Below, piece after piece: positions 1 through 15,458 of a DNA stretch of 17,396 nucleotides. Source of the stretch: Thermoplasmata archaeon (GTDB taxonomy: Archaea > Thermoplasmatota > Thermoplasmata > Lutacidiplasmatales > UBA184); assembly GCA_013044425.1 (NCBI GenBank), contig JABEUK010000057.1, forward strand, positions 1 to 17,396, in the 5' to 3' direction. Numbering within the stretch: position 1 is the stretch's first letter; each line of letters opens with the position of its first letter. The translations under genes and the position numbers were made by a program. Below the pieces are notes generated by a model. The model saw nothing but the letters and a program-made list of their open reading frames with translations. It did not search any database and was not told where the DNA came from.

Positions 1-678
1 CTCCACGTCTGCCGGCACGCCGATGCCTCGCCGCGTCGCCTCCTGCAGATCCTCGAGATCAACGCGAGTCCCGCGGCCCTCCCGGAGATCACGGCCTTCC
101 TCCGCGAACGGGCCGGCCCCGAAGAGATCTCGCTCACGCAGCTCGGATCGCAGCGGCTCCTCGTCCGTCTCGTCGGACCGCTGCCGGCCCTCTGCCACTC
201 CGTCTTCGAGATGGGGGCCATCTGCATGAGCTGTCCGTTCCTGCCGTCGGCCGGCGTCCAAGAGGGGGAGGTGCGGGAAGGGGAGTGGCGGGTGCTCGTT
301 CATCGAGTTCGGGACGCCCATCCCCTCCTCGCTTCGTTCACCACGCCGGGCAGCACGCCGGCCTCGCTGGTCCGCATCGGTTCCTTCCGAGGGTCCCTCG
401 ACCTGACGCCCCGCCAGGAGATGGCCGTCGGAACGGCCCTCGTGCTCGGGTACTATGACTACCCTCGCCGGGCCCAGCTCAAGGATGTCGCGAAGTCCCT
501 CGGGATCAGCCGTGCGACGGCCATGGAGAGCCTGCGTCGTGGCATGCGCAAGCTCGCCTCCGAGCGCCGATCCAAGGTGGGCGTCGTCCGGAGCCGCCCC
601 CCGTCCACCGACCGTCCCCGCAGCGCGTCCGTTCTCCGCGACGGCGAGGGGACGCGCCTCCCTCTCAGGGAACGATGA
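1..678 (+). CDS. HTH_10 (Bat-like) transcriptional regulator, 5' partial
   Basis: The reading frame is open from the first base of the window, so the start lies off the left edge; 225 residues are visible. Residues 134-186 form a C-terminal HTH_10 domain of the archaeal Bat type: LTPRQ, then GYYDYPRR, then the recognition helix region around LGISRATAMESLRRGMRKLA. The preceding part is a small alpha/beta sensor-like region that I cannot assign to a named domain; it contains a CMSCP motif (Cys75 and Cys78) that could bind metal or sense redox state (inference). A basic, low-complexity tail follows the HTH domain. The 3' end overlaps the convergent dehydrogenase gene by 14 bp. Its position beside the benzoyl-CoA operon makes it a candidate regulator of that operon, but nothing in the sequence proves this. 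HTH_10 identification is firm; target and signal are unknown. Confidence 0.85.
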   Translation, partial: LHVCRHADASPRRLLQILEINASPAALPEITAFLRERAGPEEISLTQLGSQRLLVRLVGPLPALCHSVFEMGAICMSCPFLPSAGVQEGEVREGEWRVLVHRVRDAHPLLASFTTPGSTPASLVRIGSFRGSLDLTPRQEMAVGTALVLGYYDYPRRAQLKDVAKSLGISRATAMESLRRGMRKLASERRSKVGVVRSRPPSTDRPRSASVLRDGEGTRLPLRER

Positions 679-1687
679 GGGTGCGGAGCCCGTTCCCGGC
701 GCGGAGGTCCTCGGCGGCCTCCCCGATCCGATCGAGCGGAAGGGTCGCGGTAACGACCGCGTCGAGGCTCACCATCCCCCTACGCACCATTTCGATGACG
801 CGGGGATAGTCCACGGGCCGGCACCCGAGGGAGCCGACGATCTCGTACTCGAAGAACATCAGACGGTTGAGCGGGATCGGAACGACCGAATCGCTGTACC
901 CCACGACGCAGAGCCGGCCCCCGCGCCGGAGCGTGGAGAGGGCCAGGCTCACGGTCTCGGGAGTACCGACCACTTCGAGGGCCACGTCCGCGCCTCCTCC
1001 GGATCTCTTCCGTACCTCGCGGCCAAGGTCGGGGTACTCCCGGGGGTCCAGCGCGTCGCACGCCCCCAGGCGCCGAGCCGTTTCGCGCTTCTCCGCCCGA
1101 AGGTCCACGGCGATCACGTTCGCACCCACGGCTGCCGCGAACTGGACGGCGTTGATGCCCACGCCGCCGCATCCGACGACGACGACCCAATCCCCGCTTT
1201 GCACTCGCGCGCGGCGGACGACCGCGTGGTATGGCGTCGTCAGGGCGTCGGCGATCACCGCGCTCGACGCGAGATTGAGATCGGAGGGCAGCGGCACGAG
1301 GTCGCGTGCCGGGACTCGGACGTACTCCGCGAACCCTCCATCGATGTGGTTACCGGGCATCTGGAGGTACGGACAGATGTTCGCGCGCCCCGATCGGCAC
1401 TGCTCGCAGTTCCGGCAGGGAAGGACCGAAGGGACGAGGACCCGGTCCCCGATGGACCGTGCGGTGTTCCCGACTCCCAGTTCCTCGACCACTCCGGAGA
1501 TCTCGTGTCCGAGAATGAGGGGCGGGCTCTTCGCGGTCGGGACGCCGTGGTCGAGGTAATGCAGATCGGTATGGCAGAAGCCGCACGCCGCCACCTTTAC
1601 GAGGGCGTCGTCCGGGCCTGGGACCGGGCGAGGCACTTCACCGACGACGAGGGGACGACCCGACCCATGAAAGACGGCCGCGCGCAT
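665..1687 (-). CDS. had: Zn-dependent alcohol dehydrogenase, likely 6-hydroxycyclohex-1-ene-1-carbonyl-CoA dehydrogenase
   Basis: A 340-residue medium-chain dehydrogenase/reductase. Catalytic zinc ligands are visible at Cys38 (CGFCHTD) and His61-Glu62 (GHE). The structural zinc lobe has Cys91, Cys94, Cys97 and Cys105. The Rossmann glycine motif GCGGVG sits at residues 172-177, with an acidic Asp195 at the end of the next strand that favours NAD+. Within this operon the expected role is NAD+-dependent oxidation of 6-hydroxycyclohex-1-ene-1-carbonyl-CoA to the 6-oxo compound, between Dch and Oah. It is the last gene of the operon, starting 12 nt after the dch stop; no clear Shine-Dalgarno motif precedes the ATG. 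The MDR family is certain; the specific substrate is inferred from operon context, since MDR enzymes are hard to assign by sequence alone. Confidence 0.85.
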   Translation of the reverse strand: MRAAVFHGSGRPLVVGEVPRPVPGPDDALVKVAACGFCHTDLHYLDHGVPTAKSPPLILGHEISGVVEELGVGNTARSIGDRVLVPSVLPCRNCEQCRSGRANICPYLQMPGNHIDGGFAEYVRVPARDLVPLPSDLNLASSAVIADALTTPYHAVVRRARVQSGDWVVVVGCGGVGINAVQFAAAVGANVIAVDLRAEKRETARRLGACDALDPREYPDLGREVRKRSGGGADVALEVVGTPETVSLALSTLRRGGRLCVVGYSDSVVPIPLNRLMFFEYEIVGSLGCRPVDYPRVIEMVRRGMVSLDAVVTATLPLDRIGEAAEDLRAGNGLRTLIVP

Positions 1688-1699
1688 GGATCCGCGGTC

Positions 1700-2470
1700 T
1701 CAGCCGTCCTTCCAAACGGGGGCTCGCTTTTCGAGGAACGCTTGGAGGCCTTCCTCGGCTCCCACGGACGTCATGAGCTCGTCGAGGTAGGTCCGCTCGG
1801 CGTATGCCAGACGGGGCCACGGGTCCACCTCCGATCTTCGGAGGACCCGTTTGAGTAGCTGCAGTGCTTCCCGACGGTAGCTGCAAAGTGTCTGGGCGGC
1901 CAATGCCACCGAGGCATCGAGCTCTTCCTCGGGAACTACACGGTTGACGATCCCGACGGCCGCCGCTCGCCGGGCATCGAACGGCGTTCCCAAGAACAGG
2001 AGCTCCGCGGCGGGCCGAGAACCCAGGAGATGGGAGTACGTGGCGGCTCCGAACGGTGCAAAGACCCCCAACCGGATCTCGGGCTGGCCGAACGACGCCC
2101 CCTCGGAGGCGATCGCGAGGTCGCAGGCCATCAGGAGCTCCATGCCGCCGCCGAGGCACCTTCCGTGGACCTGGGCGATCGTCGGGGAGGCTAGGTTCCA
2201 CAAGGTGGTGAGGGTGGTGCGGAACGCTTCGAACATCGTCGAGACCCGCGGCTTGAGATGGTCCTCGACACTGAGACCGCCGCTCCACGATCTGCCGCCG
2301 CCGCGCAGCACGACGACGTGGGCGGAGGTGACCTCCTCGCGTTGCAGCGCGCGGGTCAGCTCCTCGAGGAGCCGGATGTCGAACACGTTCGCCGGTCCGC
2401 GCTCCCAGGTGATCGTCGCACGCCCATCGACGCGCACGACGGAGACCGTGCCCGGAGGTTTTGCGCTCAC
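1700..2470 (-). CDS. dch: Crotonase family, likely cyclohexa-1,5-diene-1-carbonyl-CoA hydratase
   Basis: A 256-residue enoyl-CoA hydratase/isomerase-fold protein starting with GTG; the upstream GCGAGGC is a possible ribosome site, and the start lies 12 nt after the bcrC stop. The oxyanion-hole segments are around residues 63-66 and 107-110 (CLGGGMEL), and both catalytic glutamates of hydratases are present (Glu111 and Glu131). Two features resemble dienoyl-CoA hydratases of the benzoyl-CoA pathway rather than ordinary crotonases: the VEDHLKP...MFEAF segment at 68-83, and GVFAPFGA at 135-142 where ordinary hydratases have a GTIPGAGG-type loop. Expected reaction: water addition to the cyclic diene product of benzoyl-CoA reductase, giving 6-hydroxycyclohex-1-ene-1-carbonyl-CoA. 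Family is certain; the specific function rests on these motifs plus its position between bcrC and had. Confidence 0.85.
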   Translation of the reverse strand: MSAKPPGTVSVVRVDGRATITWERGPANVFDIRLLEELTRALQREEVTSAHVVVLRGGGRSWSGGLSVEDHLKPRVSTMFEAFRTTLTTLWNLASPTIAQVHGRCLGGGMELLMACDLAIASEGASFGQPEIRLGVFAPFGAATYSHLLGSRPAAELLFLGTPFDARRAAAVGIVNRVVPEEELDASVALAAQTLCSYRREALQLLKRVLRRSEVDPWPRLAYAERTYLDELMTSVGAEEGLQAFLEKRAPVWKDG

Positions 2471-2482
2471 GGTCTGCCTCGC

Positions 2483-3730
2483 TCACTCGAAGAGGATCGA
2501 CTCGGCGAACGTCTCGAGCTGAAGGCGTGCCTGCTCGTAGGTCGTCGACTTCTCTTCGAACTCCATGTGCAGGTAGGGGATGCCCCGTCCCTCGAGCGCC
2601 CTTCGGTAGAGCACCACGTCTTCGAGCGCGGGCTCGCAGAACTTGGCGGTGAGGAACAGCGCCCCCTGCGCCTTCGAAGCATCGACCCGTGCGAGGATGG
2701 CGGCCGCCTTGGTGGTCGGGGTGCTCCGGACCCCGATATCGATGGGCGTCCGGACGTACGACGTAGCGAGGCTCTCGAGAGGATCGCTCCCCGGCTCGAT
2801 GCGCGGGCACCAGCGGTGCAGCATCTGGAGCTCGTCGCCGACCACGTAGCACCCGACGTCCTCGACGAGCTGGAGGAGCTCGAGGGTGGGCTGTTCGCAG
2901 AACGGACCGAGCACGATCACTCGGATCGAGTCCTTGTTCTTTCGCTCCCTTCCCTCGAGCTCCGCGAGCGCCCGACGGAGGAGCGGAACGTGTACCTCCC
3001 GGGGGAGAAGACCTCCGAGCCGGAGCAGAAGGTAGTATTCGACCAGGCTGACCTTCCACGGAGAGTCCCGCTTCAACACGACAAGTCGATCCACGAGCGC
3101 GCGCTGCTCGTTGAATACTTCCAGGGATGCGCGCAGGTCCTCTTGGGAGAACGGACGGCCGGCGACGCGTTCGAGCTTCGCGATGAGGCTGCGGTACTCC
3201 GCCACCAGGAACGGGATCGTGGCCGGGGACGTGAAATTCTGCGGGAGGTGGAGCATATGCGAGGGCCGTTGGGGAAGGACTCGGGCGAAGATCCCGTCGA
3301 GGTTGCGACTGACGTCGCAGATGTACGGAAAGACGAACGCATCGAAGGGGTCGAGGAGACCGGTGAGGGCCATCTCGAGCGTCGACTTGGAGATCGAGCA
3401 GAGGAAGGAGCCGAGCGCTGCGTCGGCGCGGCTGATCTCGAGGTTCTCTCCGCCCCCCTGGATCGAGACCGGCAACATCGCGAAGGAGTGGATGAGCTCC
3501 TGCGGCGTGTAGACGGGAAAGCACCCGACGGCCTTCCCGCCCGCGGCCCGCCAGGCCCGGACGGTCGGGAACGTCGGATCGGCGAGGACCTCCTGAGCGA
3601 GATGGACGATCCGTTCGACGGACTCCGCCTCGGTGAACTCGCGGAAGTCCGACGAGATTTCGACCCCGGGAGGAGTCTCTCCATCCGGGAGATCCTCGGC
3701 CCAGGACCCGATCTTCAGCAGTTCGGGCAT
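2483..3730 (-). CDS. bcrC: Benzoyl-CoA reductase, subunit C (BcrC/BzdN-like)
   Basis: A 415-residue protein of the 2-hydroxyglutaryl-CoA dehydratase HgdB/BcrBC family. Its signatures match the gamma subunit of class I benzoyl-CoA reductase: FPVYTPQELIH at 71-81, GGGENLEI at 92-99, PYICDVSRNLDGIF at 135-148 and LPQNF at 162-166. Cysteines at 70, 111, 138 and 365 (KFCEP) are at or near positions expected to hold the active-site [4Fe-4S] cluster in this family. With BcrB it would form the module that binds benzoyl-CoA and transfers electrons to the ring. It begins with ATG two bases after the bcrD stop, so translation is probably coupled. Here it sits downstream of the ATPase genes rather than first as in the Thauera bcrCBAD order. 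A 2-hydroxyacyl-CoA dehydratase subunit is the alternative, made unlikely by the neighbouring dch, had and oah. Confidence 0.9.
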   Translation of the reverse strand: MPELLKIGSWAEDLPDGETPPGVEISSDFREFTEAESVERIVHLAQEVLADPTFPTVRAWRAAGGKAVGCFPVYTPQELIHSFAMLPVSIQGGGENLEISRADAALGSFLCSISKSTLEMALTGLLDPFDAFVFPYICDVSRNLDGIFARVLPQRPSHMLHLPQNFTSPATIPFLVAEYRSLIAKLERVAGRPFSQEDLRASLEVFNEQRALVDRLVVLKRDSPWKVSLVEYYLLLRLGGLLPREVHVPLLRRALAELEGRERKNKDSIRVIVLGPFCEQPTLELLQLVEDVGCYVVGDELQMLHRWCPRIEPGSDPLESLATSYVRTPIDIGVRSTPTTKAAAILARVDASKAQGALFLTAKFCEPALEDVVLYRRALEGRGIPYLHMEFEEKSTTYEQARLQLETFAESILFE

Positions 3731-3732
3731 GC

Positions 3733-4542
3733 CTATCCACCCGCCCCCTGCGGCGCCGCAGCAAGCTTCCGAAGCCGCGAGTGCCCGAGGATCGCGCTAC
3801 CGATGGCGGCGGCGTAGTACGCTTCGGGTGCCACGTTCAGGTCCATCCCGACCGTGTCGTGGAGGGCCTTCACCATCCCGACGTTGCGCACGAGGCCCCC
3901 GACGAGCGTGACCTCCGGCTGGATCCCCACGTAGCGCATGAGGGAGTGCGCGCGCTGAGCGAGGGAGAGGAAGACGCCCATCAGGATGTCGGGGAGCGGT
4001 ACGCCTTCGGCGACGTTGTTGATGATCTCCGTCTCGGCCAGGACCGCGCAGACGCTCGAGATGAGCTTCGGGCGTTCCGACGCGAGCGCCTTCGGGCCCA
4101 TTTCCTCGAGCGGGACCTGGAGATACTTCGAACAGCGTTCGACGAAGCGGCCCGCACCGGCGGCGCACTTCTCGTTCATCTTGAACTTGAGGACCTTTCC
4201 CGTATCGGAGACGGACATGGTCCGGGAGGCCTGCGTTCCAACGTCGACCACCAGCCGGGTCTTCGGAAAGAGGAAGATGGCGCCGCGCGCGGAGGATGTG
4301 AAGTCGCTGACCTGCAGGTTCCGCTCGGGGATCGTGTACCGGCCGAATCCGGTCGTGCAGAGGTAGTCGATGTCGTCCGGAGCGATGTTGGCCGCCTCTC
4401 CCAGGGCATCCAGCACTTGGCGCGCGACCTGGACCGGGATCCCCCGCGACGGAGCCGAGGCGGTCGCGAGGATGCGCTGGCCGTCTTCGAGCAGCGCACC
4501 CTTGATGGCTCCCGCGCCGAGGTCGAGACCCCCGGTGATCAT
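3733..4542 (-). CDS. bcrD: Benzoyl-CoA reductase ATPase subunit D (BcrD/BzdQ-like)
   Basis: A 269-residue BadF/BadG/BcrA/BcrD-type ATPase of the ASKHA (actin/Hsp70-like) fold. I take the ATG whose first base is 4542 because it overlaps the bcrA stop as ATGA and begins directly with the first phosphate motif GGLDLGAGAIKG; the frame is open further upstream but that part is out-of-frame readthrough of bcrA. Cluster ligands expected to bridge the A and D subunits are Cys126 (KCAAGAG) and Cys165 (SSVCAVLAETE). The ICAVLAETEIIN-like segment points to BcrD rather than BcrA. The second phosphate motif is degenerate: VGTQASR at 101-107 replaces the canonical GGQDTK. Role: with BcrA, couples ATP hydrolysis to electron transfer from ferredoxin to BcrBC. 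Family assignment is firm; the A-versus-D label is slightly less so. Confidence 0.88.
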   Translation of the reverse strand: MITGGLDLGAGAIKGALLEDGQRILATASAPSRGIPVQVARQVLDALGEAANIAPDDIDYLCTTGFGRYTIPERNLQVSDFTSSARGAIFLFPKTRLVVDVGTQASRTMSVSDTGKVLKFKMNEKCAAGAGRFVERCSKYLQVPLEEMGPKALASERPKLISSVCAVLAETEIINNVAEGVPLPDILMGVFLSLAQRAHSLMRYVGIQPEVTLVGGLVRNVGMVKALHDTVGMDLNVAPEAYYAAAIGSAILGHSRLRKLAAAPQGAGG

Positions 4543-5333
4543 GCCGCGCCTCCCGAGAGCCGTTCGCGGCCGTGGAGCGCGGCTCCCAAAGCTCCGAGGT
4601 ACTGCGAGAGCGGGCTCACGTTGACGGGGGCGCCGAGCCGGCGGCGGAGTGCGTGGACCATGCCCTCGTTCTGGGAGACGCCGCCCGTGAACGTGATCTC
4701 GGGCTCGACCCCGACCCGCTGCATCAGGGAAAGCGTCCGATTCGCGATGCTGGCATGCAGCCCTGCGAGGATGTCCTTCGGGTCCTTGCCCCGCGACACG
4801 TACGACGTGACCTCGGATTCCGCGAAGACCGTGCAGGTGCTCGTGACCTTCACCGCGCGCCGGGCTTGGAGGGAGAGCGGCCCGATCTCGCCGACATCGT
4901 ACCCCAGCGCGTTGGCACACACGTCCAAGAATCGCCCGGTGCCGGCCGCGCACTTGTCGTTCATCGCGAAGTCGACGACCTCGCCCTTCTCGTCGATCCG
5001 GATCGCCTTCGTGTCCTGGCCACCGATATCGACCACCAGGCGCGTTCCGGGAAACAGGAAGTGGGCTCCCCGCGCGTGGCAGGAGATCTCGGTGACGACG
5101 AGCTGGCCGAAGTAGACCTTGTACCGGCCGTAGCCGGTGCCGGTGATGAACGATACATCGGACCGGGACAGGTGAGAGTCGGCAAGCGCCGCCTCGAGGG
5201 CGCGCTCCGCGTCCTTCACGATATCCACTCCGACCACGCTGAGCGACTTGCCGAGGATCCGTGGACCCTCTCCGAGGACCACGCACTTCGCCGTCGTCGA
5301 GCCGATGTCGACGCCCGCGACGACCCCGCTCAT
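4539..5333 (-). CDS. bcrA: Benzoyl-CoA reductase ATPase subunit A (BcrA/BzdP-like)
   Basis: A 264-residue BadF/BadG/BcrA/BcrD ATPase. The ATG at 5333 is chosen because it overlaps the bcrB stop as ATGA and immediately precedes the phosphate-1 motif GVDIGSTTAK (residues 7-16). Other landmarks are TGTGYGR (64-70), an intact phosphate-2 motif DIGGQDTKAI (102-111), and cluster cysteines Cys128 (NDKCAAGTGRF) and Cys167 (STCTVFAESE). These are the typical features of the activating ATPase that carries a [4Fe-4S] cluster between two subunits. The protein is much shorter than the roughly 48-kDa BcrA of Thauera and is closer in size to the small ATPase subunits of bzd-type reductases. HgdC-like dehydratase activators share the fold; two separate ATPase genes next to two catalytic subunits favour a benzoyl-CoA reductase. 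Confidence 0.9.
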   Translation of the reverse strand: MSGVVAGVDIGSTTAKCVVLGEGPRILGKSLSVVGVDIVKDAERALEAALADSHLSRSDVSFITGTGYGRYKVYFGQLVVTEISCHARGAHFLFPGTRLVVDIGGQDTKAIRIDEKGEVVDFAMNDKCAAGTGRFLDVCANALGYDVGEIGPLSLQARRAVKVTSTCTVFAESEVTSYVSRGKDPKDILAGLHASIANRTLSLMQRVGVEPEITFTGGVSQNEGMVHALRRRLGAPVNVSPLSQYLGALGAALHGRERLSGGAA

Positions 5334-6634
5334 CCGGGGGCGGCCCCCGCCGCGGCGGACACGGCCCGGCGCTGCTCGAGGGATTCGAAGAAGGCGTCCA
5401 TGCGGTTCTTGATCTGGGCGGGCGCGAAGTACCGCGGGTCCTGATGGTCGGACTCGATGTAGAGGGTGGGTACCCCCTGGTCGTGGATCAACCAGTCCCT
5501 CAGGTCCCCCTGGCCGGCGGTGAACGAGCGGCACGACTTGATCCCGTGGATGATGACCGCGTCCACCTCGTACTCCTTCACGTAGTCGGCGATGATCTTC
5601 CGGCGCAACGGCCAGGATTGATTCACGTAGGCGCCGAGGCTGTACTCCGCGATGCTCTCGAACGGCCGGGACGGGTCGTGCCGGAAGCCGCGGTCGAAGA
5701 GCCCCCCGACCTTCGGGTAGGTCGCGACGACCGATACCGCGCCCCACTTTCGGAAGAAGTCCCAGAACGTCCGGTAGTTGGTGTACGGCGGGACTCCCTC
5801 GACGAGGACGCGGACCTTCTCCTCCGGCAGAGGATAGTTCCCGTCCCGCACCCGGGCTCGGACCTCCTCGTTCACCACGTCGTAGAAATCCGCGGCCCCG
5901 GGCGTTCCCCGAAGCACATTGATCGGGAACATGTAGAAGATCGATTCAAAGTACGCCTCGATCGGCGACGGGCGGAGACGGCCGGCGCGGAGGAACTCTA
6001 CCCACCCATCCTCGGCCCGGCGCGATTCGGCCAGCACCCGCTTGAGCTCGTCCATGTCGAACGCGCGCCCGGTGCGCTTCTCGAGGAGGTGGACGAGCTC
6101 CCAGAGCTGGCTCACCAAGTAGGCGATGTCCTCTTTGCGGGGAGTCTCCTCCCGCATGTACGGCACGTCGAACATGAACAGCGGGGCGCCGTAGGACTCG
6201 GCGAGCGCCTCCCACCACTTCACGTACACATAGCAGCCGGAGAAACTGCAGACGAGCAGGTCGGGACGTGGGATCTGACCGAACGAGGTCTTCCCACCTA
6301 GGTCTTGGAGACCGAGGTCGTTCTTCACGTACCCGCAGACATCGAGCCCGTACCCGAGCGACTCGGCGTGCAGGATGTTCTCGAGCGACTGGTGCTTGAT
6401 CGCACAGTTGAGCGCGACGATCTCCGGGAAGACCACATCGTAGCCGAACGAACGGAGGATCTCCGTGAGGTTCCCTCCGACCAGCATGTACGCCACGGGT
6501 CGGCGTGGTGGGTCGGTGGACGCGAGTTCGCCGTAGTACTCCTCCACGAGCTTGCGCTGGAGGCCGCGGGCATCGCGAAGGAAGGAGCGCGAGACGCCGC
6601 CGGGGACCGCGGGTGCCGATGCGCCTTCCGCCAC
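5330..6634 (-). CDS. bcrB: Benzoyl-CoA reductase, subunit B (BcrB/BzdO-like)
   Basis: A 434-residue HgdB/BcrBC-family protein with subunit-B signatures: VGGNLTEILRSFG at 52-64, VVFPEIVALN at 67-76, GLDVCGYVKND at 96-106, FSGCYVYVKWWE at 131-142, and near the C-terminus GIKSCRSF (364-371) and ESDHQDPRYF (394-403). Cysteines 100, 129, 134 and 368 are candidates for the active-site [4Fe-4S] cluster and its surroundings. It pairs with BcrC as the benzoyl-CoA-binding reductase module. The start is GTG, four bases after the oah stop; no better in-frame start precedes the conserved region. The stop overlaps the bcrA start as ATGA. Length fits the 430-450 residues usual for this subunit. Confidence 0.92.
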   Translation of the reverse strand: MAEGASAPAVPGGVSRSFLRDARGLQRKLVEEYYGELASTDPPRRPVAYMLVGGNLTEILRSFGYDVVFPEIVALNCAIKHQSLENILHAESLGYGLDVCGYVKNDLGLQDLGGKTSFGQIPRPDLLVCSFSGCYVYVKWWEALAESYGAPLFMFDVPYMREETPRKEDIAYLVSQLWELVHLLEKRTGRAFDMDELKRVLAESRRAEDGWVEFLRAGRLRPSPIEAYFESIFYMFPINVLRGTPGAADFYDVVNEEVRARVRDGNYPLPEEKVRVLVEGVPPYTNYRTFWDFFRKWGAVSVVATYPKVGGLFDRGFRHDPSRPFESIAEYSLGAYVNQSWPLRRKIIADYVKEYEVDAVIIHGIKSCRSFTAGQGDLRDWLIHDQGVPTLYIESDHQDPRYFAPAQIKNRMDAFFESLEQRRAVSAAAGAAPG

Positions 6635-6638
6635 CGTC

Positions 6639-7745
6639 TCACGCCCCGGGCGCCTTCGGCGAGGGGAGAGCGGATCCGCACCTTCCGCAGAACTCGAAAT
6701 CCTCGGGGAGCCCCTTGGCCCCGCAGGCCGAGCAACGTCGCGCGGGGCGGCCGAAGAGGAACTCGCTCCCCCTTCCTTCGGCGAGGCGACGGCGAAGGCC
6801 CGCCACGTCGGGAGGTCGCTTCTCGACGAACGCGTTCATTCCCTCGTGGGGTTCCCGATCGGTGAAGTGGAGGGAGAGCCATTCGCGGCCGTGACCGATC
6901 GTGCTGTTCCAGGCCAGCTCCTTCCAGAAGTTCACCTGCTGTTTGGTGTACCGAAGGCATTCCGGGAACATCCCCAGCAGGCGCTCGCAGAGTCGATCGA
7001 CCGACGCGTCCAGCGGCGCGAGGTCGATCTGGTAGCCTTCCAACGCCTTGCGCGCGAGGTCGATCTGCTCGCTCGTGGGGTCTTCGACGAGCTCCGTTCC
7101 GCGCCGTACGGATGGGGCGACCTCGCTCACGAGACCCCAGTCCAGGGCTTTGGGCGCCGAGATCCGTTCATTGAGAAACAGCATGCTGCGGGCCCGGCGG
7201 TCTCCCACCACGAGAGGGAGCCATTGGGTAGCGCCACCGCAGGCGACCGAGCCGACGCCTACGCCCACCTGCCCGATGTACACGTGGGACGCCGCGACCG
7301 ATAGATCGCATGCGAGATGGAGCTCGTTTCCGCCGCCCACGGTGATCCCGTTGAGCCGTGCGATCGTCGGCTTCCCGCACCGCAGCAGAGCTTCGATCGC
7401 TCCCTGGAAGAGGCCCATGTACTTCCAGTAGTCCCGGGGGCGTTGGGTGTAGCGTTCGGCATATTCGCGGACGTCACCGCCGGTGCAGAAGGCCGCCGAC
7501 CCCGCGCCCGTGAGCACGATGACGCCGACCGCATCGTCGAGCGACGCATCCTCAACCGCCCGGGCGAGCTCCCGAAGGGTGCCGGTCGCGTAGGCGTTGT
7601 ACGCGCCGGGGCGATTGAGCGTGATGCGCGCGATCCCATCGCGCTTCTCGTAGAGGAGGTCTTGGAAGCCGATGTCCTGCGGTGCCTTCGGCGCTAGGGC
7701 GTCGAGATCGCTGACGAGTCCGGACGGGGTGCGGCGTGCCTTCAT
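6639..7745 (-). CDS. oah: 6-oxocyclohex-1-ene-1-carbonyl-CoA hydrolase with C-terminal zinc ribbon
   Basis: A 368-residue crotonase-superfamily protein matching the ring-opening hydrolase of benzoyl-CoA degradation. Recognisable features are FCTGGDVREYAERY (86-99) followed by QRPRDYWKYMGLF, GGGNEL at 137-142 (Glu141 present), loss of the second hydratase glutamate (Gly161 in GQVGVGVGS), GGATQWLPL at 170-178, and the C-terminal FPECLRY and REWLSLHF segments found in Oah proteins but not ordinary hydratases. It adds water and hydrolyses the ring C-C bond, giving 3-hydroxypimelyl-CoA. After the Oah fold there is a zinc ribbon, Cys338, Cys341, Cys353 and Cys356 (CxxC-x11-CxxC), which I do not know from characterised bacterial Oah. 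It is the first gene of the operon. The ATG is preceded by a weak GTGA ribosome-site match. Confidence 0.92.
   Translation of the reverse strand: MKARRTPSGLVSDLDALAPKAPQDIGFQDLLYEKRDGIARITLNRPGAYNAYATGTLRELARAVEDASLDDAVGVIVLTGAGSAAFCTGGDVREYAERYTQRPRDYWKYMGLFQGAIEALLRCGKPTIARLNGITVGGGNELHLACDLSVAASHVYIGQVGVGVGSVACGGATQWLPLVVGDRRARSMLFLNERISAPKALDWGLVSEVAPSVRRGTELVEDPTSEQIDLARKALEGYQIDLAPLDASVDRLCERLLGMFPECLRYTKQQVNFWKELAWNSTIGHGREWLSLHFTDREPHEGMNAFVEKRPPDVAGLRRRLAEGRGSEFLFGRPARRCSACGAKGLPEDFEFCGRCGSALPSPKAPGA
6678..6734 (-). other. Zinc-ribbon extension at the C-terminus of Oah
   Basis: Codons for Oah residues 338-356 encode CSACG, an 11-residue spacer and CGRCG, followed by a short Pro/Ala-rich tail. 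The two CxxC knuckles are typical of small archaeal zinc ribbons. The segment is in frame with the hydrolase and ends just before the stop, so it is a fused domain and not a separate gene. Its role is unknown; zinc-stabilised oligomer contacts or binding to another pathway protein are possible. Confidence 0.8.
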
Positions 7746-7859: not shown

Positions 7860-8423
7860 CTACCGTCCGCGGAGGTCCCCGTACGCGGGCCGCCGCACCC
7901 CGAAGCTAGCCCCGAGCTGAACTTCGATAGCCTCGCAGATCTCGGCCACTTCGGACATCTCCGCCGGAGTGAGGACGGCCCGGGCCATCGGGAAGAGAAC
8001 CCGATCTTCCTTCTCGATGTGGTCCGCCAAGAGGCGGTCGACCGCGTCGGTGGCGACGGAGACCGCGGTCCAGGCTTCTACCGCCTCGAGGTCGGTCTCG
8101 AGCTTGGGGACGTTGCGGGCGATGGTCTTCTGATGGCGGCGTAGGAGGCCGTGCTCCTCGAGCATCACGCCCACCGGGCCGCCCTCGCTCCCGATGTGTC
8201 GGACGAGGATCGGGAAAAGTCCCTCCTCTTCCTTTCGCCCGTGGAATCCGTCCACATCCTTCGCAAGAAAGTCGGCGAACGTGGACATCGAGGCCGCTAC
8301 GGCCCGGGCTCCGCGCCCTTCCCCCGAGAGTCGCTGAAGATCGGTCCGGACCTCCTCGAGGCGCCGGAGGAAGCCCTGGTGTTCCTCCATCAGGACCGCG
8401 ATGGGGTCGTAGGAAATCGCCAC
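7860..8423 (-). CDS. Hemerythrin-like HHE cation-binding domain protein
   Basis: A 187-residue, mostly helical protein with the spaced His/Glu ligands of hemerythrin HHE domains: His15 (EEHQG), His61 and Glu65 (FHGRKEEEG), His91 (MLEEHG), His97, and His135 with Glu139 (DHIEKEDRVLFP). Such proteins carry a di-iron site and are known as oxygen carriers or sensors, iron stores, or NO/peroxide-related proteins. I choose the GTG at 8423 because GGGGAGG lies about 7 nt upstream and the conserved part begins soon after; an ATG at 8495 would add 24 poorly conserved-looking residues. It is transcribed toward the benzoyl-CoA operon, 114 bases upstream of it, so cotranscription is possible. A role in protecting the oxygen-sensitive reductase is speculation. 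Confidence 0.85.
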   Translation of the reverse strand: MAISYDPIAVLMEEHQGFLRRLEEVRTDLQRLSGEGRGARAVAASMSTFADFLAKDVDGFHGRKEEEGLFPILVRHIGSEGGPVGVMLEEHGLLRRHQKTIARNVPKLETDLEAVEAWTAVSVATDAVDRLLADHIEKEDRVLFPMARAVLTPAEMSEVAEICEAIEVQLGASFGVRRPAYGDLRGR

Positions 8424-8540
8424 TACGGGCCCCTCCCCAGGACGGATGCGACACGGACCACCGGCTTCCACCGGCGGTGGGCACGCTCCATCCATCCATC
8501 GGATCGATCCGACATACGATTGCCGAAGGGCCGCGGATGT

Positions 8541-8601: not shown

Positions 8602-9393
8602 ATGCCCGTCCGTTTCAAGACCGACGGGCGCGTCGCGTGGATCACTCTGGATCGTCCGGAGGCGCTGAACGCCATCGATCCAGAGTCCCATGCTGCCCTG
8701 GTGGCCGCCTGGGAGCGCTTTCGCGATGCGGACGACCTCCGTGTGGCCGTGCTCACGGGAGCGGGCCGGAAGGCGTTCTGCGCCGGGGTCGACATCAAAC
8801 GGATGGGGGAGTTCTATGGGAAGGTCCCGGCCGGGCAGCGAGTACAGGTCTGGAACCGCGAACCGGGGATCGGCGGGCTCACCCGGAATCTCGAGGTAGG
8901 CAAGCCCGTCATCGCCGCGGTCAACGGACTGTGTCTCGGGGGTGGGCTCGAGTTGGCCCTCGCCTGCGACATCCGCTTGGCGAGCGCGAACGCCAGCTTC
9001 GGTCTGCCCGAGGTACGTTGGGCGATCATCCCCGGTCAGGGAGGAACCCAGCGGCTCCCGCGAGCCGTGCCAGCCGCCGTAGCGCTCGAGATGATCCTCA
9101 CTGCCCGTCCGATCGATGCCGCACGAGCCGCGGCCATCGGTCTGGTCAACCGGGTGTACCCGTTCGCCCGCCTTCGGGAGGAGGCCCAGACGATGGCGGA
9201 GGCGATCGCTGCACACCCGCCCCGCGCCGTTCGAGCCGCGCTTGCGGCGGTGCGCGGTGGCCTCGCCCTCCCGCTCTCCGAAGGCCTGCGGCTCGAGCAG
9301 GAGCTTGCCGATCCTCTGCGCGACAGCCCGGACAATCGCGAAGCCCGGGAGGCGTTCCGGGAGAAGCGACCGCCTCGCTGGACCGTCGGCTGA
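8602..9393 (+). CDS. Enoyl-CoA hydratase/isomerase
   Basis: A 263-residue crotonase with all hallmarks of a true hydratase: FCAGVDIKRM at 59-68 (oxyanion hole), CLGGGLELALACD at 111-123 with catalytic Glu117, FGLPEV with Glu137, and IIPGQGGTQRLPR (142-154). The C-terminal AFREKRPPRW is the usual family ending. It probably hydrates trans-2-enoyl-CoA in beta-oxidation. It is divergently oriented to the hemerythrin-like gene and separate from the benzoyl-CoA operon, so a role in the lower pathway (3-hydroxypimelyl-CoA to acetyl-CoA) is possible but unproven. It is clearly distinct from Dch and Oah. A strong GGGAGGAG motif about 10 nt upstream supports the ATG at 8602. Confidence 0.9.
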   Translation: MPVRFKTDGRVAWITLDRPEALNAIDPESHAALVAAWERFRDADDLRVAVLTGAGRKAFCAGVDIKRMGEFYGKVPAGQRVQVWNREPGIGGLTRNLEVGKPVIAAVNGLCLGGGLELALACDIRLASANASFGLPEVRWAIIPGQGGTQRLPRAVPAAVALEMILTARPIDAARAAAIGLVNRVYPFARLREEAQTMAEAIAAHPPRAVRAALAAVRGGLALPLSEGLRLEQELADPLRDSPDNREAREAFREKRPPRWTVG

Positions 9394-12446: not shown

Positions 12447-13568
12447 GTGCCGGCTCGGAGAGCAACGCCCAAAACGGACGTCGAACTCAGGTCCTCCGTG
12501 AACGGCGGATCACCCTTCGACTCCCGGCTGGATACGACGCTCTTGGAAGGGCTCGAGTTTGCATGCCGCCCGGACTGCGGCCTCTGCTGCTACGCGACCC
12601 CCGCGGTGGATCGAGCCGAGCGAGCGGAGCTTCTTCAGATCGCTCCGGAGAGCACCTTCATTGCCGACGCACGCGGCAGGGCCTACATTCCCGCCCGGCC
12701 GCAGGGCGGAGCGTGCCAGTTCCTCGCCCAGAGTCGCTGCAGCGTGCACGCTGCGCGACCGTTCCCGTGCGCCGTGTTTCCCGTGATCGTCCACGCCGGG
12801 ACTCGCTTCCAGGCGTCCGCGGTGCTGTCCTGTCCCGGCGTCTCGATCCCGGGGGCGGTCGATCCGGGGGGCGTCCGCGCACTCGGGCCCCCCCGCGGTC
12901 TCGAGACGGAGCTCGGCCGCGCCGAGGCTCGATGCCGCTCCGAGGAAGGAAGGCGAGCCCTGGCGGCCGCACGACGGGACGGTCAGCGCGTTGAACGGAT
13001 CCTCGAACGAGAGGGCCTATGGGTACCGACGCTCCAGGTCCGCGCGTCGTTGCGCGGACGGATTCCCCTGCCGGATTCGTCGGACTTTCCCGTCGAGGAT
13101 CCTCCCGAGCTCGAGGAGGGAGAGGAGGTCTTGCCGCTCTTCTTTGATGACCGACGCGGCCCCGTCGCGATCGCCGGCCACGCCGGCGGCTGGCAGCTCG
13201 TGGAGCTCCAGGAGGCGGGAGGCATCCGCGCGTGGCGGGGCGTCTGGCCCCCTCCCACACGAATGCCGCGGCTCGACGCCGGCGCGGAGCGCGCCCTGCG
13301 AGAGTATCTCGCCTACTGGCTGGAGCGCGATGCCCTGTTCGGGTTCGTGCACGCGGCCATGCTCGAGGAACCTTCCGGGGAGGATGTCCTCATCCGCATC
13401 ACCCGAGAACTGCGCTGGATCGGAGCGACGACCGTCGCGAGGGCCCGGGTTCGAGCGAGCGGTCGGGGAGCGAGCGCACCGGTGCTCGCGGAGCCCGATA
13501 TCGCGCGAGGCATCCGGGCCTCGGACGCCGATCTGCTCGATCGTGCCGGCTGGACCGTTCAGCTCTGA
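12447..13568 (+). CDS. YkgJ-like cysteine-cluster (CxxCxxCC) protein
   Basis: A protein of 373 residues from GTG at 12447, or 356 from GTG at 12498. The N-terminal third carries the YkgJ/CxxCxxCC family pattern: Cys40, Cys44, Cys47 and Cys48 (CRPDCGLCC), then Cys90 (GACQFL), Cys98 (RCSVH) and Cys108 (RPFPCAVFP). These cysteines are expected to bind zinc or an Fe-S cluster; the biochemical role of the family is not established. The rest is an acidic, mostly soluble region that I do not recognise, with no membrane segment. The first residues (MPARRATPK...) look non-conserved; an AAAAC stretch about 27 nt before 12498 would suit a leaderless start there, but the match to a TATA box is weak. The stop overlaps the convergent HDAC-like gene by 10 bp. 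Confidence 0.8.
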   Translation: MPARRATPKTDVELRSSVNGGSPFDSRLDTTLLEGLEFACRPDCGLCCYATPAVDRAERAELLQIAPESTFIADARGRAYIPARPQGGACQFLAQSRCSVHAARPFPCAVFPVIVHAGTRFQASAVLSCPGVSIPGAVDPGGVRALGPPRGLETELGRAEARCRSEEGRRALAAARRDGQRVERILEREGLWVPTLQVRASLRGRIPLPDSSDFPVEDPPELEEGEEVLPLFFDDRRGPVAIAGHAGGWQLVELQEAGGIRAWRGVWPPPTRMPRLDAGAERALREYLAYWLERDALFGFVHAAMLEEPSGEDVLIRITRELRWIGATTVARARVRASGRGASAPVLAEPDIARGIRASDADLLDRAGWTVQL

Positions 13569-14716
13569 ATGCGGGGTCGCGGGAACCGGCGCCCGAGGGC
13601 CGATTCGAGATCGCCGACCAGCTGCTCCTCGGCCCCCGAGTTCCACGGCGAAGGGAGCCGCTGGGTAGGGATCGACCAATCGAGCGGGGCCGCCTCTCCC
13701 GTCTCCCGCTCGAACTCGGCCCGCCAAGCGATCGGTAGCGGGTCGTCCCGCCCCGGCCCCGAAACCGAGCCCGCGAGGCGGTGGCCGGCTCGAGCGAGCC
13801 CTCGCGCGACGTTCTCGGGCGTGTATCCTCCCCCGCCCGTGACCAGGAGGCGGGAGCGACACAGCTCACGAGAGAGGTCCAGGAGCTCGTCCAAGACCGC
13901 CGCGTACCCATCGGGGGTGTACTGGAGGCCCGCGAGTCGATCGCCCGCGTGGCCGTCCAATCCATGTTGCAGGACGATGAGATCGGGGCGAAACTCGCGC
14001 ATCAACGGCGGGACCACGCGCCGGAAGAGCGGGACGAGCGCCTCATCTCCCGCGCCCGGCGGCAACGGAAGGTTGACCTTGAGACCCTCGCCGTCGCCCT
14101 GCCCGGTCTCGCTCGGGAACCCGGTGCCGGGAAAGAGCGTCCTCCCGTCCTGATGGAAATCGATATCGAGGACGCGTCCGGAGTCGAAGAACCCGTACAT
14201 CACGCCGTCCCCGTGGTGGGCGTCGATGTCGAGATACGCGACCCGGTCGCCTCCGTCCAGCCCGCGGCGAACGGCGAGGGCGACGTCGTTGACGATACAG
14301 AAGCCGCTCGCCCGGTCCGGGTGGGCGTGGTGCAGGCCACCGGACGGCTGGAACACCGGCGCGTCCCGCTCGCGGGCGAGAGCGACCGCGCGCAGGGAGG
14401 CAGAGGCCACGCGGCCGGAGGCCTCCCAACATCCGGGAAACGCGGGCGTGTCGCCCGTGTCGAGGAAGACCGAGCGCTTTCCCGCGCTGGAGCGCTCGAC
14501 GAGCTCGAGGTACTCCGGCGTGTGGAACGTAGACAGCTCCGCCCGCGATGCCGGATCGATCTCTCGCACCCATTCCACCCTGGATTCGGGTGCTAGGGTC
14601 GCTTCGAGCAGGCGGGCGGCGAGCGCCCGGCTCGACATCTGAAACGGGTGACCCGCCCCGAAGTCGTACTTCCGGAACCGCTCGTCCCAGATCACCGTCA
14701 GCCGACGCGCGGTCAT
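13559..14716 (-). CDS. Histone deacetylase/AcuC family amidohydrolase
   Basis: A 385-residue arginase-deacetylase-fold protein with a full set of HDAC catalytic residues: His129-His130 in GGLHHAHP, zinc ligands Asp165 and His167 (DIDAHHGDGV), Asp254 (QHGLDGHAGD), and the transition-state Tyr298 (GGGGYTPENVAR). The loop FHQDGRTLFPGTG (188-199) is also typical. It should remove acetyl or related acyl groups from lysine side chains or small amines; in prokaryotes substrates include acetyl-CoA synthetase and acetylpolyamines, and in archaea chromatin proteins such as Alba have been considered. The ATG lies 25 nt after the stop of the TMEM175-like gene, with no TATA box of its own, so the two are probably cotranscribed. 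The C-terminal region beyond about residue 315 is less conserved. Confidence 0.92.
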   Translation of the reverse strand: MTARRLTVIWDERFRKYDFGAGHPFQMSSRALAARLLEATLAPESRVEWVREIDPASRAELSTFHTPEYLELVERSSAGKRSVFLDTGDTPAFPGCWEASGRVASASLRAVALARERDAPVFQPSGGLHHAHPDRASGFCIVNDVALAVRRGLDGGDRVAYLDIDAHHGDGVMYGFFDSGRVLDIDFHQDGRTLFPGTGFPSETGQGDGEGLKVNLPLPPGAGDEALVPLFRRVVPPLMREFRPDLIVLQHGLDGHAGDRLAGLQYTPDGYAAVLDELLDLSRELCRSRLLVTGGGGYTPENVARGLARAGHRLAGSVSGPGRDDPLPIAWRAEFERETGEAAPLDWSIPTQRLPSPWNSGAEEQLVGDLESALGRRFPRPRIQS

Positions 14717-14741: not shown

Positions 14742-15458
14742 TCACGCGTCGTCCGCAGCGGGGGACCGAACGTAGCCGACCCTCTGCATCGTGCGTTCGC
14801 CCCTCCGAGCGATCCAGCGGCCGCCGATCGCGGCCGCTCCGAGCGCTACGACCCAGTAGAAGTAGCGCGCATGGAGGACGATAAGCTTCGGCGGAGAGGC
14901 ATCGTTCAGCTGGGAGGTCGTGAGGGTCCACGACCAGAACACCGGTAGGATCGCGAGGGCGATCAGGGCCGCGCTGACGTACCGCCAGTGGATCAGGTTC
15001 TGGATCTCGTGCGAGAGGGCCGACGGGACCTCGTGCGCGGGGTGCAGGATCCCCTGACGCATCATCAGGCCGAGGATCAGGAACATCAGCGCGACGTCCA
15101 GCGACCAGGCGATCGACGATAGATCGAGCAGCGTCTGATCCCGTCCGAGGAAGACGCCCGACCATACGATGAACAGCAGGTACGGTTCCAGCGACACGAG
15201 CATCAGGAGCAAGGCGCTGAGCAGCAGGAGCTTCTCCCGCTCCACCGTAATCCGTTCGGTGATGCGGGTGTAGGACGTCCAGATCCAGACGAGAAGGCCG
15301 AAGCTCACGACGAACTCCGCGATGTATCCGACCACCTCCACCGGGTTGTTCGGAGGGGCGAACGCGAGCTGGATCGCGGTGATCGAGAGCGCGAGGCCGA
15401 AGATCATGTCGCCGAGCGCCTCGACGCGCGAGGGGCTGATGTGCGAGAGCGCCGCCAT
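14742..15458 (-). CDS. TMEM175-like (DUF1211) integral membrane protein
   Basis: A 238-residue membrane protein with about six hydrophobic segments. The N-terminal helix contains SRVEALGDMIFGLALSIT (10-27), matching the conserved RxxAxxDxIF signature of the TMEM175/DUF1211 family, in which the first helix lines the pore. Characterised members are potassium channels made of repeated six-helix units; a single unit such as this would assemble as a tetramer (family knowledge). The start at 15458 is supported by a TATA box 29 nt upstream. It is the first gene of a probable two-gene unit with the HDAC-like gene. Channel function and ion selectivity are inferred. Confidence 0.75.
   Translation of the reverse strand: MAALSHISPSRVEALGDMIFGLALSITAIQLAFAPPNNPVEVVGYIAEFVVSFGLLVWIWTSYTRITERITVEREKLLLLSALLLMLVSLEPYLLFIVWSGVFLGRDQTLLDLSSIAWSLDVALMFLILGLMMRQGILHPAHEVPSALSHEIQNLIHWRYVSAALIALAILPVFWSWTLTTSQLNDASPPKLIVLHARYFYWVVALGAAAIGGRWIARRGERTMQRVGYVRSPAADDA

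What the first reader, a model, noticed from the sequence alone, without database searches (positions are those of the whole stretch)
665..7745. Complete class I benzoyl-CoA degradation operon in an archaeal genome
Seven adjacent minus-strand genes cover the reductase (A, B, C and D subunits), diene hydratase, hydroxyacyl-CoA dehydrogenase and ring-opening hydrolase, with gaps of 12 nt or less or 4-nt overlaps. The wider context is archaeal (TFB, HTH_10, F1-type iminopeptidase, TATA promoters). Ferroglobus placidus is the best-known archaeon with this pathway; a high-GC Thermoplasmatota-like host would extend its range and suggests anaerobic aromatic use.
Basis: partly seen in the sequence, partly recalled or inferred. 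Interest (0 to 1): 0.82.

Follow-up and report, generated by a model that had tools for sequence, protein, structure and literature searches.

The report
Archaeal operon for opening benzene rings
Seven adjacent genes in an archaeon from a group known from acidic soils look like a full set for breaking open aromatic rings without oxygen; the pathway is known, but this host group's gene order and its unusual ring-opening enzyme appear to be a new variant.

Summary
In detail: seven minus-strand genes (665-7745) encode an ATP-dependent (class I, bcr-type) benzoyl-CoA reductase (BcrB, A, D, C), a hydratase, a dehydrogenase and a ring-opening hydrolase, with gaps of 2-12 nt or 4-nt overlaps. Iron-sulfur cysteines are conserved and selection is purifying. 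The contig is no chimera: it is collinear with a 799-kb same-genus contig. The genus includes SubAcS9-61, a published Lutacidiplasmatales genome. Of 21 bcr-carrying genomes in the genus (78 searched), 20 also encode a haem-copper oxidase, so they are probably facultative anaerobes.

"Extends the range beyond Ferroglobus" is only partly right: Thermoplasmata bcr was reported in 2019 and 2022. Unreported as far as my few searches show: (1) the order oah-bcrBADC-dch-had, found only in this clade; (2) an Oah subfamily with a C-terminal zinc ribbon, grouping with canonical Oah and taking its place in bcr loci of Heimdall archaea and several bacterial phyla; (3) a co-directional hemerythrin gene recurring beside bcr clusters. 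No benzoate-CoA or phenylacetate-CoA ligase over cut-off was found in the (incomplete) host genome, so substrate entry stays open. Nothing was tested biochemically.

The parts
6639..7745 (-). [quoted passage not shown]
   Evidence: TIGR03200 209 bits, best of 72 families, below cut-off; one clade with canonical Oah, 99/96*, 97/95* without the ribbon columns; E <= 1e-60 in 19 of 78 genus genomes, all 19 bcr carriers
6675..6734 (-). C-terminal zinc ribbon of Oah (CxxC...CxxC, residues 338-357)
   Evidence: sequence; pattern in 118 of 120 and 120 of 120 listed homologs of two searches, absent from the nine canonical-type Oah of bcr loci
5330..6634 (-). bcrB: catalytic HGD-D subunit, 434 aa; cluster cysteines C100, C134, C368
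   Evidence: TIGR02260 336 bits; MbdO (PDB 9g87) 218 bits; these Cys in 81 of 81 rows
4539..5333 (-). bcrA: ATPase activator subunit, 264 aa; C128, C167
   Evidence: TIGR00241 272 bits over cut-off, TIGR02259 207 bits below cut-off; Cys in 71 of 71 rows
3733..4542 (-). bcrD: second activator subunit, 269 aa; C126, C165
   Evidence: TIGR00241 190 bits over cut-off, TIGR02261 167 bits below cut-off; Cys in 71 of 71 rows
2483..3730 (-). bcrC: second HGD-D subunit, 415 aa; C111, C138, C365
   Evidence: TIGR02263 271 bits; MbdN (PDB 9g87_B) 265 bits; Cys in 74, 74 and 73 of 74 rows
1700..2470 (-). [quoted passage not shown]
   Evidence: ECH_1 154 bits; TIGR03189 129 bits against generic ECH 130; groups with the crotonase picked as Dch from other bcr loci (13 rows, 97/95*; a weak test, one other crotonase besides Oah in that tree); absent in L035
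665..1687 (-). [quoted passage not shown]
   Evidence: TIGR03201 273 bits (cut-off 338.65), next best 195
7860..8495 (-). hemerythrin (HHE) gene directly upstream of oah, same strand, 114 nt away; probable operon member
   Evidence: PF01814 61 bits; His/Glu ligand set in 19 of 19 rows; recurs beside bcr clusters; less constrained than the seven genes, dN/dS 0.31
1..678 (+). HTH_10 regulator gene, convergent with had (ends overlap 14 nt); 5' end cut by contig end; probable operon regulator
   Evidence: PF04967 68 bits; within 3.6 kb of the operon in the window and 19 of 28 related loci
8602..9393 (+). divergent enoyl-CoA hydratase (EchA19-like), perhaps lower-pathway beta-oxidation; linkage conserved in much of the clade
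   Evidence: NF051848 247 bits, ECH_1 205 bits; tblastn hits beside the operon

Best explanation
The operon encodes the central anaerobic benzoyl-CoA route of the Thauera type in an archaeon of the Lutacidiplasmatales clade that can probably also respire oxygen. Inferred steps: BcrAD hydrolyses ATP and passes electrons from reduced ferredoxin (made by 2-oxoacid:ferredoxin oxidoreductases) to BcrBC, which reduces an aryl-CoA, most likely benzoyl-CoA, to the cyclic diene; the crotonase Dch hydrates it; the zinc dehydrogenase Had oxidises the alcohol; the zinc-ribbon Oah opens the ring by adding water, giving 3-hydroxypimelyl-CoA for beta-oxidation. The upstream hemerythrin probably buffers or senses oxygen (or protects iron-sulfur centres), and the linked HTH_10 protein probably regulates the operon. 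Shown here: genes, order, conservation, cysteine ligands, purifying selection, family placement. Inferred from established knowledge of the families: substrate, direction, intermediates. Guessed: expression, roles of hemerythrin and HTH_10.
For: BcrB 336 bits to TIGR02260 against 159 to the hydroxyisocaproyl-CoA dehydratase model; BcrC 271 against 181. PDB MbdO/MbdN (3-methylbenzoyl-CoA reductase) 218 and 265 bits against 133 and 168 for the dehydratase. Cluster cysteines conserved. All seven genes in order in 22 of 28 related loci. Oah placement 99/96*, and 97/95* without ribbon columns; shared residues. Zinc-ribbon Oah in 19 of 78 genus genomes, all 19 bcr carriers. dN/dS 0.07-0.18. POR_N proteins in 8 of 8 genomes tried, the window's included. 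Haem-copper oxidase in 70 of 78 genus genomes. Collinear same-genus contig of 799 kb.
Against: No pathway-specific model is passed at its curated cut-off. Dch cannot be told from a generic enoyl-CoA hydratase by HMM score, and L035 lacks it. No benzoate-CoA ligase or PaaK over cut-off in the window's genome, which is 83% complete. An HcrA-like subunit (817 bits, cut-off 994.55) occurs in genomes with and without bcr. The Heimdall Oah L048 scores marginally better as MenB (189 bits) than as Oah (187). bcr is patchy: 21 of 78 genus genomes. No expression or activity data.
Confidence: 0.8

Rival explanations
1. Same chemistry, different substrate: a class I aryl-CoA reductase whose physiological substrate is a substituted or hetero-aromatic CoA ester (for example methyl- or hydroxybenzoyl-CoA) rather than benzoyl-CoA itself.
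For: Nearest solved relatives of BcrB and BcrC by sequence are MbdO and MbdN of 3-methylbenzoyl-CoA reductase. All subunits fall outside the curated benzoyl-CoA equivalogs. No benzoate-CoA ligase over cut-off in 77 of 78 genus genomes.
Against: BcrB and BcrC match bcr-type models far better than bzd-type ones (336 against 109 and 271 against 96 bits). Had and Oah of the unsubstituted pathway are in the same operon.
Confidence: 0.22
2. The HGD-D proteins are 2-hydroxyacyl-CoA dehydratases, as some database names say, serving amino-acid fermentation.
For: Shared PF06050 fold; some source names read '2-hydroxyacyl-CoA dehydratase'.
Against: Scores for benzoyl-CoA reductase models and structures exceed dehydratase ones by 85-177 bits; linked Had and Oah.
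Confidence: 0.03
3. The hemerythrin and HTH_10 genes are neighbours without a role in the pathway; only the seven genes form a functional unit.
For: 13 of 23 loci of the clade with at least 1 kb upstream of oah lack the hemerythrin. Many bcr carriers have strong hemerythrins elsewhere in the genome. The hemerythrin is less constrained, dN/dS 0.31. HTH_10 lies at differing positions, and no background count of HTH_10 genes was made.
Against: 16 of 19 hemerythrin hits in 81 bcr loci lie within 1.5 kb of a cluster gene, all 16 co-directional, at several operon positions and in unrelated phyla. HTH_10 stays linked despite rearrangement.
Confidence: 0.3
4. Contig chimera or contaminating bacterial DNA in the bin.
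For: Fragmented bin (217 contigs) with a second, 85%-identical copy of part of the operon on a 3.5-kb contig.
Against: Window collinear from TFB to HTH_10 with a 799-kb contig (L019; same length as G001:C6); bcr in 21 of 78 genus genomes.
Confidence: 0.01

Closest known systems
Class I bcr-type benzoyl-CoA reductase operon with dch-had-oah (Thauera aromatica; gene set as quoted in PMC8163825, other Thauera facts recalled)
   Same: Four reductase subunits, zinc-type Had, crotonase-type Dch and Oah; best pathway-specific HMM matches
   Different: All below equivalog cut-offs; BcrA aligns only from position 211 of the 432-position model; order oah-bcrBADC-dch-had; zinc-ribbon Oah
bcrABCD in Ca. 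Yaplasmales (Thermoplasmatota, PMC9239135) and in Thermoplasmata of deep-sea seeps (PMC6472368)
   Same: Same phylum, class I bcr reported from MAGs
   Different: Marine sediments, described as probable anaerobes or acetogens; L050, a MAG titled Candidatus Thermoplasmatota that I take to be of the Yaplasmales study by its sample label, has bcrC-B-A-D-dch-had and a BcrB in another part of the tree
Heimdallarchaeota bcr loci (L047, L048; bcr in Heimdall, Loki and Hermodarchaeota reported in PMC8163825)
   Same: Among the fetched loci the closest BcrB outside Thermoplasmatota (59-60%), one clade with the window's group (100*, quick tree); zinc-ribbon Oah
   Different: bcrC before bcrB (inverted in L047); oah after bcrD
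Canonical Oah (TIGR03200)
   Same: One clade with the zinc-ribbon type; shared residues conserved in both and not in Dch (T88, G90, E94, Y95, Y52, K125, R130, N132, W279, W289)
   Different: 33-36% identity to the window's, no zinc ribbon, longer internal segment; three members tested score 486-569 bits, five of the ribbon type 187-226
BadI, 2-ketocyclohexanecarboxyl-CoA hydrolase
   Same: Hydrolytic ring cleavage (recalled); about 40% identity over 78% of the query
   Different: Grouping of zinc-ribbon Oah with BadI rejected (p-AU 3e-81; 2e-40 without ribbon columns); no zinc ribbon

Membership tests
[quoted passage not shown]
   PF06050 twice, PF01869 twice, adjacent genes
[quoted passage not shown]
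   BcrB and BcrC aligned with MbdO and MbdN
[quoted passage not shown]
   HMM and PDB scores
bcr-type equivalogs TIGR02259/02260/02261/02263 | Score over curated cut-off | tested here: not met
   207/578, 336/486.55, 167/312.85, 271/421.15 bits: related to, but outside, the curated set
[quoted passage not shown]
   needs purified protein
Canonical Oah (TIGR03200) | Score over curated cut-off | tested here: not met
   209 of 464.45 bits, best stretch residues 39-224; L060, L063, L068 pass
Oah in the wider sense | Grouping with canonical Oah to the exclusion of BadI, MenB and Dch | tested here: met
   99/96* in a 39-row tree; 97/95* without ribbon columns; few outsiders (3 BadI or BadI-like, 1 MenB, 4 ECH/Dch, 1 other)
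Had (TIGR03201) | Score over curated cut-off | tested here: not met
   273 of 338.65 bits, yet best by far, next 195
Dch (TIGR03189) | Distinct from generic enoyl-CoA hydratases | tested here: inconclusive
   129 against 130 bits; tree test weak
Lutacidiplasmatales host | Same genus as a published Lutacidiplasmatales genome | tested here: met
   L028 is SubAcS9-61; its BcrC edge fragment at 3431-3703 equals that of G105:C87, listed 'same genus'; SubAcS9-61 stands in the paper's table just before the Lunaplasmatales heading. Indirect: no species tree was made

The most novel reading that the evidence does not exclude
Zinc-ribbon Oah is a separate, undescribed family of ring-opening hydrolases that, together with an operon-embedded hemerythrin oxygen guard, lets oxygen-respiring archaea and uncultured bacteria of several phyla run the oxygen-sensitive class I benzoyl-CoA route where oxygen fluctuates, as in acidic soils. 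Ribbon-bearing homologs in Gemmatimonadota, Longimicrobiales and Chloroflexota would then mark hidden aromatic-ring catabolism in lineages often thought of as aerobic.
Probability: 0.3. Interest if true: 0.65.

Novelty: new variant of a known kind. Interest (0 to 1): 0.5.

Why it matters
Class I benzoyl-CoA reductase is an ATP-costly, oxygen-sensitive enzyme (recalled). A conserved operon for it in archaea that also carry haem-copper oxidases, in a group known from acidic soils, points to archaeal turnover of plant-derived aromatics on land. The zinc-ribbon Oah is a practical marker: a bamA survey keyed to the canonical model's cut-off would miss the members scored here. The hemerythrin link gives a directly testable idea of how such an enzyme is kept working near oxygen.

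Tried and rejected
Rejected: (1) dehydratase reading of BcrBC. (2) BadI reading of the Oah: plasmid hits at about 40% identity made it plausible; trees with BadI and MenB rejected it. (3) Chimera. (4) Feeding routes not found: benzoate-CoA ligase TIGR02262 over cut-off in 1 of 78 genus genomes (G059); PaaK TIGR02155 over cut-off in 0 of 78, weak matches in 25, best 34 bits; HcrA-like TIGR03194 match in 76 of 78, none over cut-off, not tied to bcr; 52 kb around ligase and HcrA in G001 read by eye, nothing tied to bcr seen. (5) Hemerythrin co-occurrence (a hit of 50 bits or more in 16 of 21 bcr carriers against 3 of 57 others, counted; Fisher p 9e-10) is not corrected for kinship or for incomplete bins. 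(6) Structure prediction of Oah never ran (server busy). (7) A search of Chloroflexota genomes for zinc-ribbon Oah did not run, so whether the enzyme occurs without bcr outside the genus is untested.

Limits of counts: the BcrB tree (86 rows) is a quick LG+G4 tree; identical proteins were merged, and L067 does not appear by name (its copy is probably L111). The Oah trees used 44 and 39 chosen rows. Ribbon and no-ribbon groups were sorted by a CxxC pattern, so the cysteines are conserved in the first group by choice; the ribbon group is one side of a branch at 97/87* but only 89/75 and 89/80 once BadI and MenB are added. The Oah reading frames cut from L052 and L058 run on past the expected end, L057 is truncated, L066 is short: left out of the trees; L052, L057, L058 (57-61% identity) fit the ribbon type but are not counted as ribbon-tested. 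'No locus with both Oah types' rests on tblastn identity. Supplements of papers were not read.
Full report
What is there. The window is a whole contig (C193, 17,396 bp) of a 1.42-Mb bin in 217 contigs, 83% complete. Seven minus-strand genes at 665-7745 are packed with 2-12-nt gaps or 4-nt overlaps: oah, bcrB, bcrA, bcrD, bcrC, dch-like and had in transcription order. Each reductase subunit, Had and Oah has a benzoyl-CoA-pathway model as its best pathway-specific match, always below the curated cut-off; BcrA and BcrD pass the general activase model TIGR00241. The dch-like gene ties with a generic enoyl-CoA hydratase. BcrA aligns to its model only from position 211 of 432, so it is a short activator.

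Reductase, not dehydratase. BcrB scores 336 bits to TIGR02260 against 159 for the hydroxyisocaproyl-CoA dehydratase model, BcrC 271 against 181. Against solved structures, MbdO and MbdN of 3-methylbenzoyl-CoA reductase give 218 and 265 bits, the dehydratase 133 and 168. Cysteines that align with MbdO and MbdN are conserved: BcrB C100, C134, C368 in 81 of 81 rows; BcrC C111 and C138 in 74 of 74, C365 in 73 of 74. BcrA C128, C167 and BcrD C126, C165 are conserved in 71 of 71 (rows are the window and those of loci L019-L098 with a long enough hit).

Real and maintained. 22 of 28 related Thermoplasmata loci (27 titled Thermoplasmata archaeon, one titled bacterium) hold all seven genes in this order on one strand; five of the other six are cut by contig ends, and L035 lacks only dch. 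dN/dS against L019 is 0.07-0.18 for the seven genes and 0.31 for the hemerythrin; against the partial second copy on contig C39 it is 0.06-0.14 for the four genes there. That copy (oah-bcrB-A-D, 85% DNA identity, 3.5 kb) is a sister-strain fragment or a duplicate.

Host. The window is collinear from TFB to HTH_10 with L019, on a contig of MAG YP1.bin63 whose length, 799,357 bp, equals that of G001:C6, same genus. Of 78 genus genomes searched, 20 have a BcrC match (one, G105, as a contig-edge fragment) and G027 is added by its BcrB: 21. Among near-complete ones 12 of 25 have BcrC. G105 is the published SubAcS9-61 (same edge fragment at 3431-3703), which stands in the genome table of the Lutacidiplasmatales paper just before the Lunaplasmatales heading (PMC9287336, passages). 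That paper's main text has no 'benzoyl' or 'aromatic' and describes the order as aerobic or facultative, from acidic environments. COX1 is found in 70 of 78 genus genomes, in 20 of the 21 bcr carriers (not in G105) and twice in the window's genome. I built no species tree.

Prior art. Class I bcr in Thermoplasmata and Bathyarchaeota: PMC6472368 (passages). bcrABCD in Ca. [quoted passage not shown] Asgard bcr: PMC8163825 (passages). Another Thermoplasmatota archaeon, abundant in a benzene-fed culture, lacked most of these genes (PMC10570749, passages). So the archaeal extension is in print at phylum level. For this host group I searched 'Lutacidiplasmatales' (15 papers listed, two opened, PMC9287336 and PMC12220078, neither with 'benzoyl' in the main text) and 'benzoyl-CoA' with 'Thermoplasmata' and 'acid mine drainage' (no paper).

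Evolution. In the BcrB tree (86 rows, quick) the window's group joins Heimdall loci (100*), whereas L050 (by its sample label probably Yaplasmales), a groundwater euryarchaeote (L057) and L111 (G140, same phylum) fall among bacterial sequences: at least two bcr lineages in Thermoplasmatota, on an unrooted tree with some long branches. Of 52 loci outside the window's clade, 48 show both bcrC and bcrB, and in all 48 bcrC comes before bcrB (inverted in L047); in the window's clade bcrC follows bcrD.

The ring-opening enzyme. The window's Oah ends in a CxxC...CxxC zinc ribbon. The ribbon type, 52-64% identical to the window's in other groups, is in bcr loci of Heimdall, Acidobacteriota, Chloroflexota, Planctomycetota, Neomarinimicrobiota and another Thermoplasmata lineage (L067); nine other bcr loci (L060, 61, 63, 65, 66, 68, 69, 72, 85) have a protein 33-36% identical and without ribbon. 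Three of these nine were scored and pass the TIGR03200 cut-off (486-569 bits); five ribbon-type proteins reach 187-226, and one, L048, scores slightly better as MenB (189 against 187). I saw no locus with both types in the fetched stretch. In a 39-row tree with BadI, MenB and Dch the two Oah types form one clade (99/96*), and still do without the ribbon columns (97/95*); grouping the ribbon type with BadI is rejected (p-AU 3e-81 and 2e-40). The ribbon type by itself is one side of a branch at 97/87*, 89/75 and 89/80, so its single origin is likely but not firm. Many residues are conserved in 22 ribbon rows (95% or more) and 8 canonical rows (90% or more) but not in Dch rows. The ribbon pattern is in 118 of 120 listed homologs of the window's Oah and 120 of 120 of L056's. 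In the genus, this Oah (E 1e-60 or better) is in 19 of 78 genomes, all 19 bcr carriers; in the two carriers without such a hit, G105 and G015, the bcr contig is cut within or before oah (L028, L044). [quoted passage not shown]

Neighbours. A hemerythrin gene (7860-8495) lies directly upstream of oah. In 81 bcr loci (window plus L019-L098) there are 19 hemerythrin hits: 16 within 1.5 kb of a cluster gene (230.5 kb of flank) and 3 beyond (513.7 kb; L067 at 1.6 kb on the other strand, L082 twice). All 16 are co-directional: 10 in the window's clade upstream of oah, 6 in Neomarinimicrobiota, Bacteroidota (two), Latescibacterota and Planctomycetota (two) beside dch, had or the second activator gene. 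In the window's clade 13 of 23 loci with at least 1 kb upstream of oah lack it. Its His/Glu ligand set is in 19 of 19. Hemerythrins were noted before in benzoate clusters under BenR, AphS or BoxR control of Betaproteobacteria, role unclear (PMC6449761, passages). Of four papers with 'hemerythrin' and 'benzoyl-CoA reductase', the three opened do not tie it to bcr clusters in the passages shown; the fourth was not opened. An HTH_10 gene is within 3.6 kb of the operon in the window and 19 of 28 related loci, at differing positions, and in L067; several of the others are truncated, and no background count was made.

What is missing. No benzoate-CoA ligase over cut-off except in G059, no PaaK over cut-off, an HcrA-like protein whatever the bcr status. 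POR_N proteins are in 8 of 8 genomes tried. Substrate entry stays open; an unrecognised acyl-CoA ligase is the simplest guess.

Verdict. A genuine class I benzoyl-CoA-type operon in an order for which I found no report, with its own gene order, a divergent Oah subfamily and a hemerythrin link. New variant of a known kind; moderate interest.

Noticed in passing
G000:C39 (L003) 1-3479: Second copy of oah-bcrB-A-D at 85% DNA identity on a short contig of the same bin: sister-strain fragment or duplicate.
   Followed up: partly
L025 and L037: Two divergent bcr operons in one MAG, WH2.bin83: true duplication or co-binning.
   Followed up: no
Homologs P0241-P0360: Relatives (62-91% to the Oah of L056) from Gemmatimonadota, Longimicrobiales, Rhodothermales, Ardenticatenaceae and others, 120 of 120 with the ribbon pattern; whether those genomes carry bcr is unknown.
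   Followed up: partly
G000:C200 (L107, L122), G001:C6:375310-377541 and most of the genus: HcrA-like molybdenum hydroxylase subunit (about 820 bits, below cut-off) in genomes with and without bcr; in G001 a nucleotidyltransferase-like ORF (Mo-cofactor type by eye) lies close by.
   Followed up: partly
G059:C102 (L099, L121): The only benzoate-CoA ligase over the TIGR02262 cut-off among 78 genus genomes; G059 also carries bcr.
   Followed up: partly
L035, about 14144: Operon lacks dch: had follows bcrC directly.
   Followed up: no
L027, L030, L032, L033, L034, L043 upstream of oah: A conserved protein of about 400 aa, U32-peptidase-like by eye, not confirmed by any search.
   Followed up: no
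window 13559-14716 (-): Histone-deacetylase-fold protein (PF00850), with a TMEM175-type gene next to it at 14742-15458.
   Followed up: no
L052: The Oah reading frame runs on into a tail that looks SDR-like by eye: fusion or sequence error.
   Followed up: no
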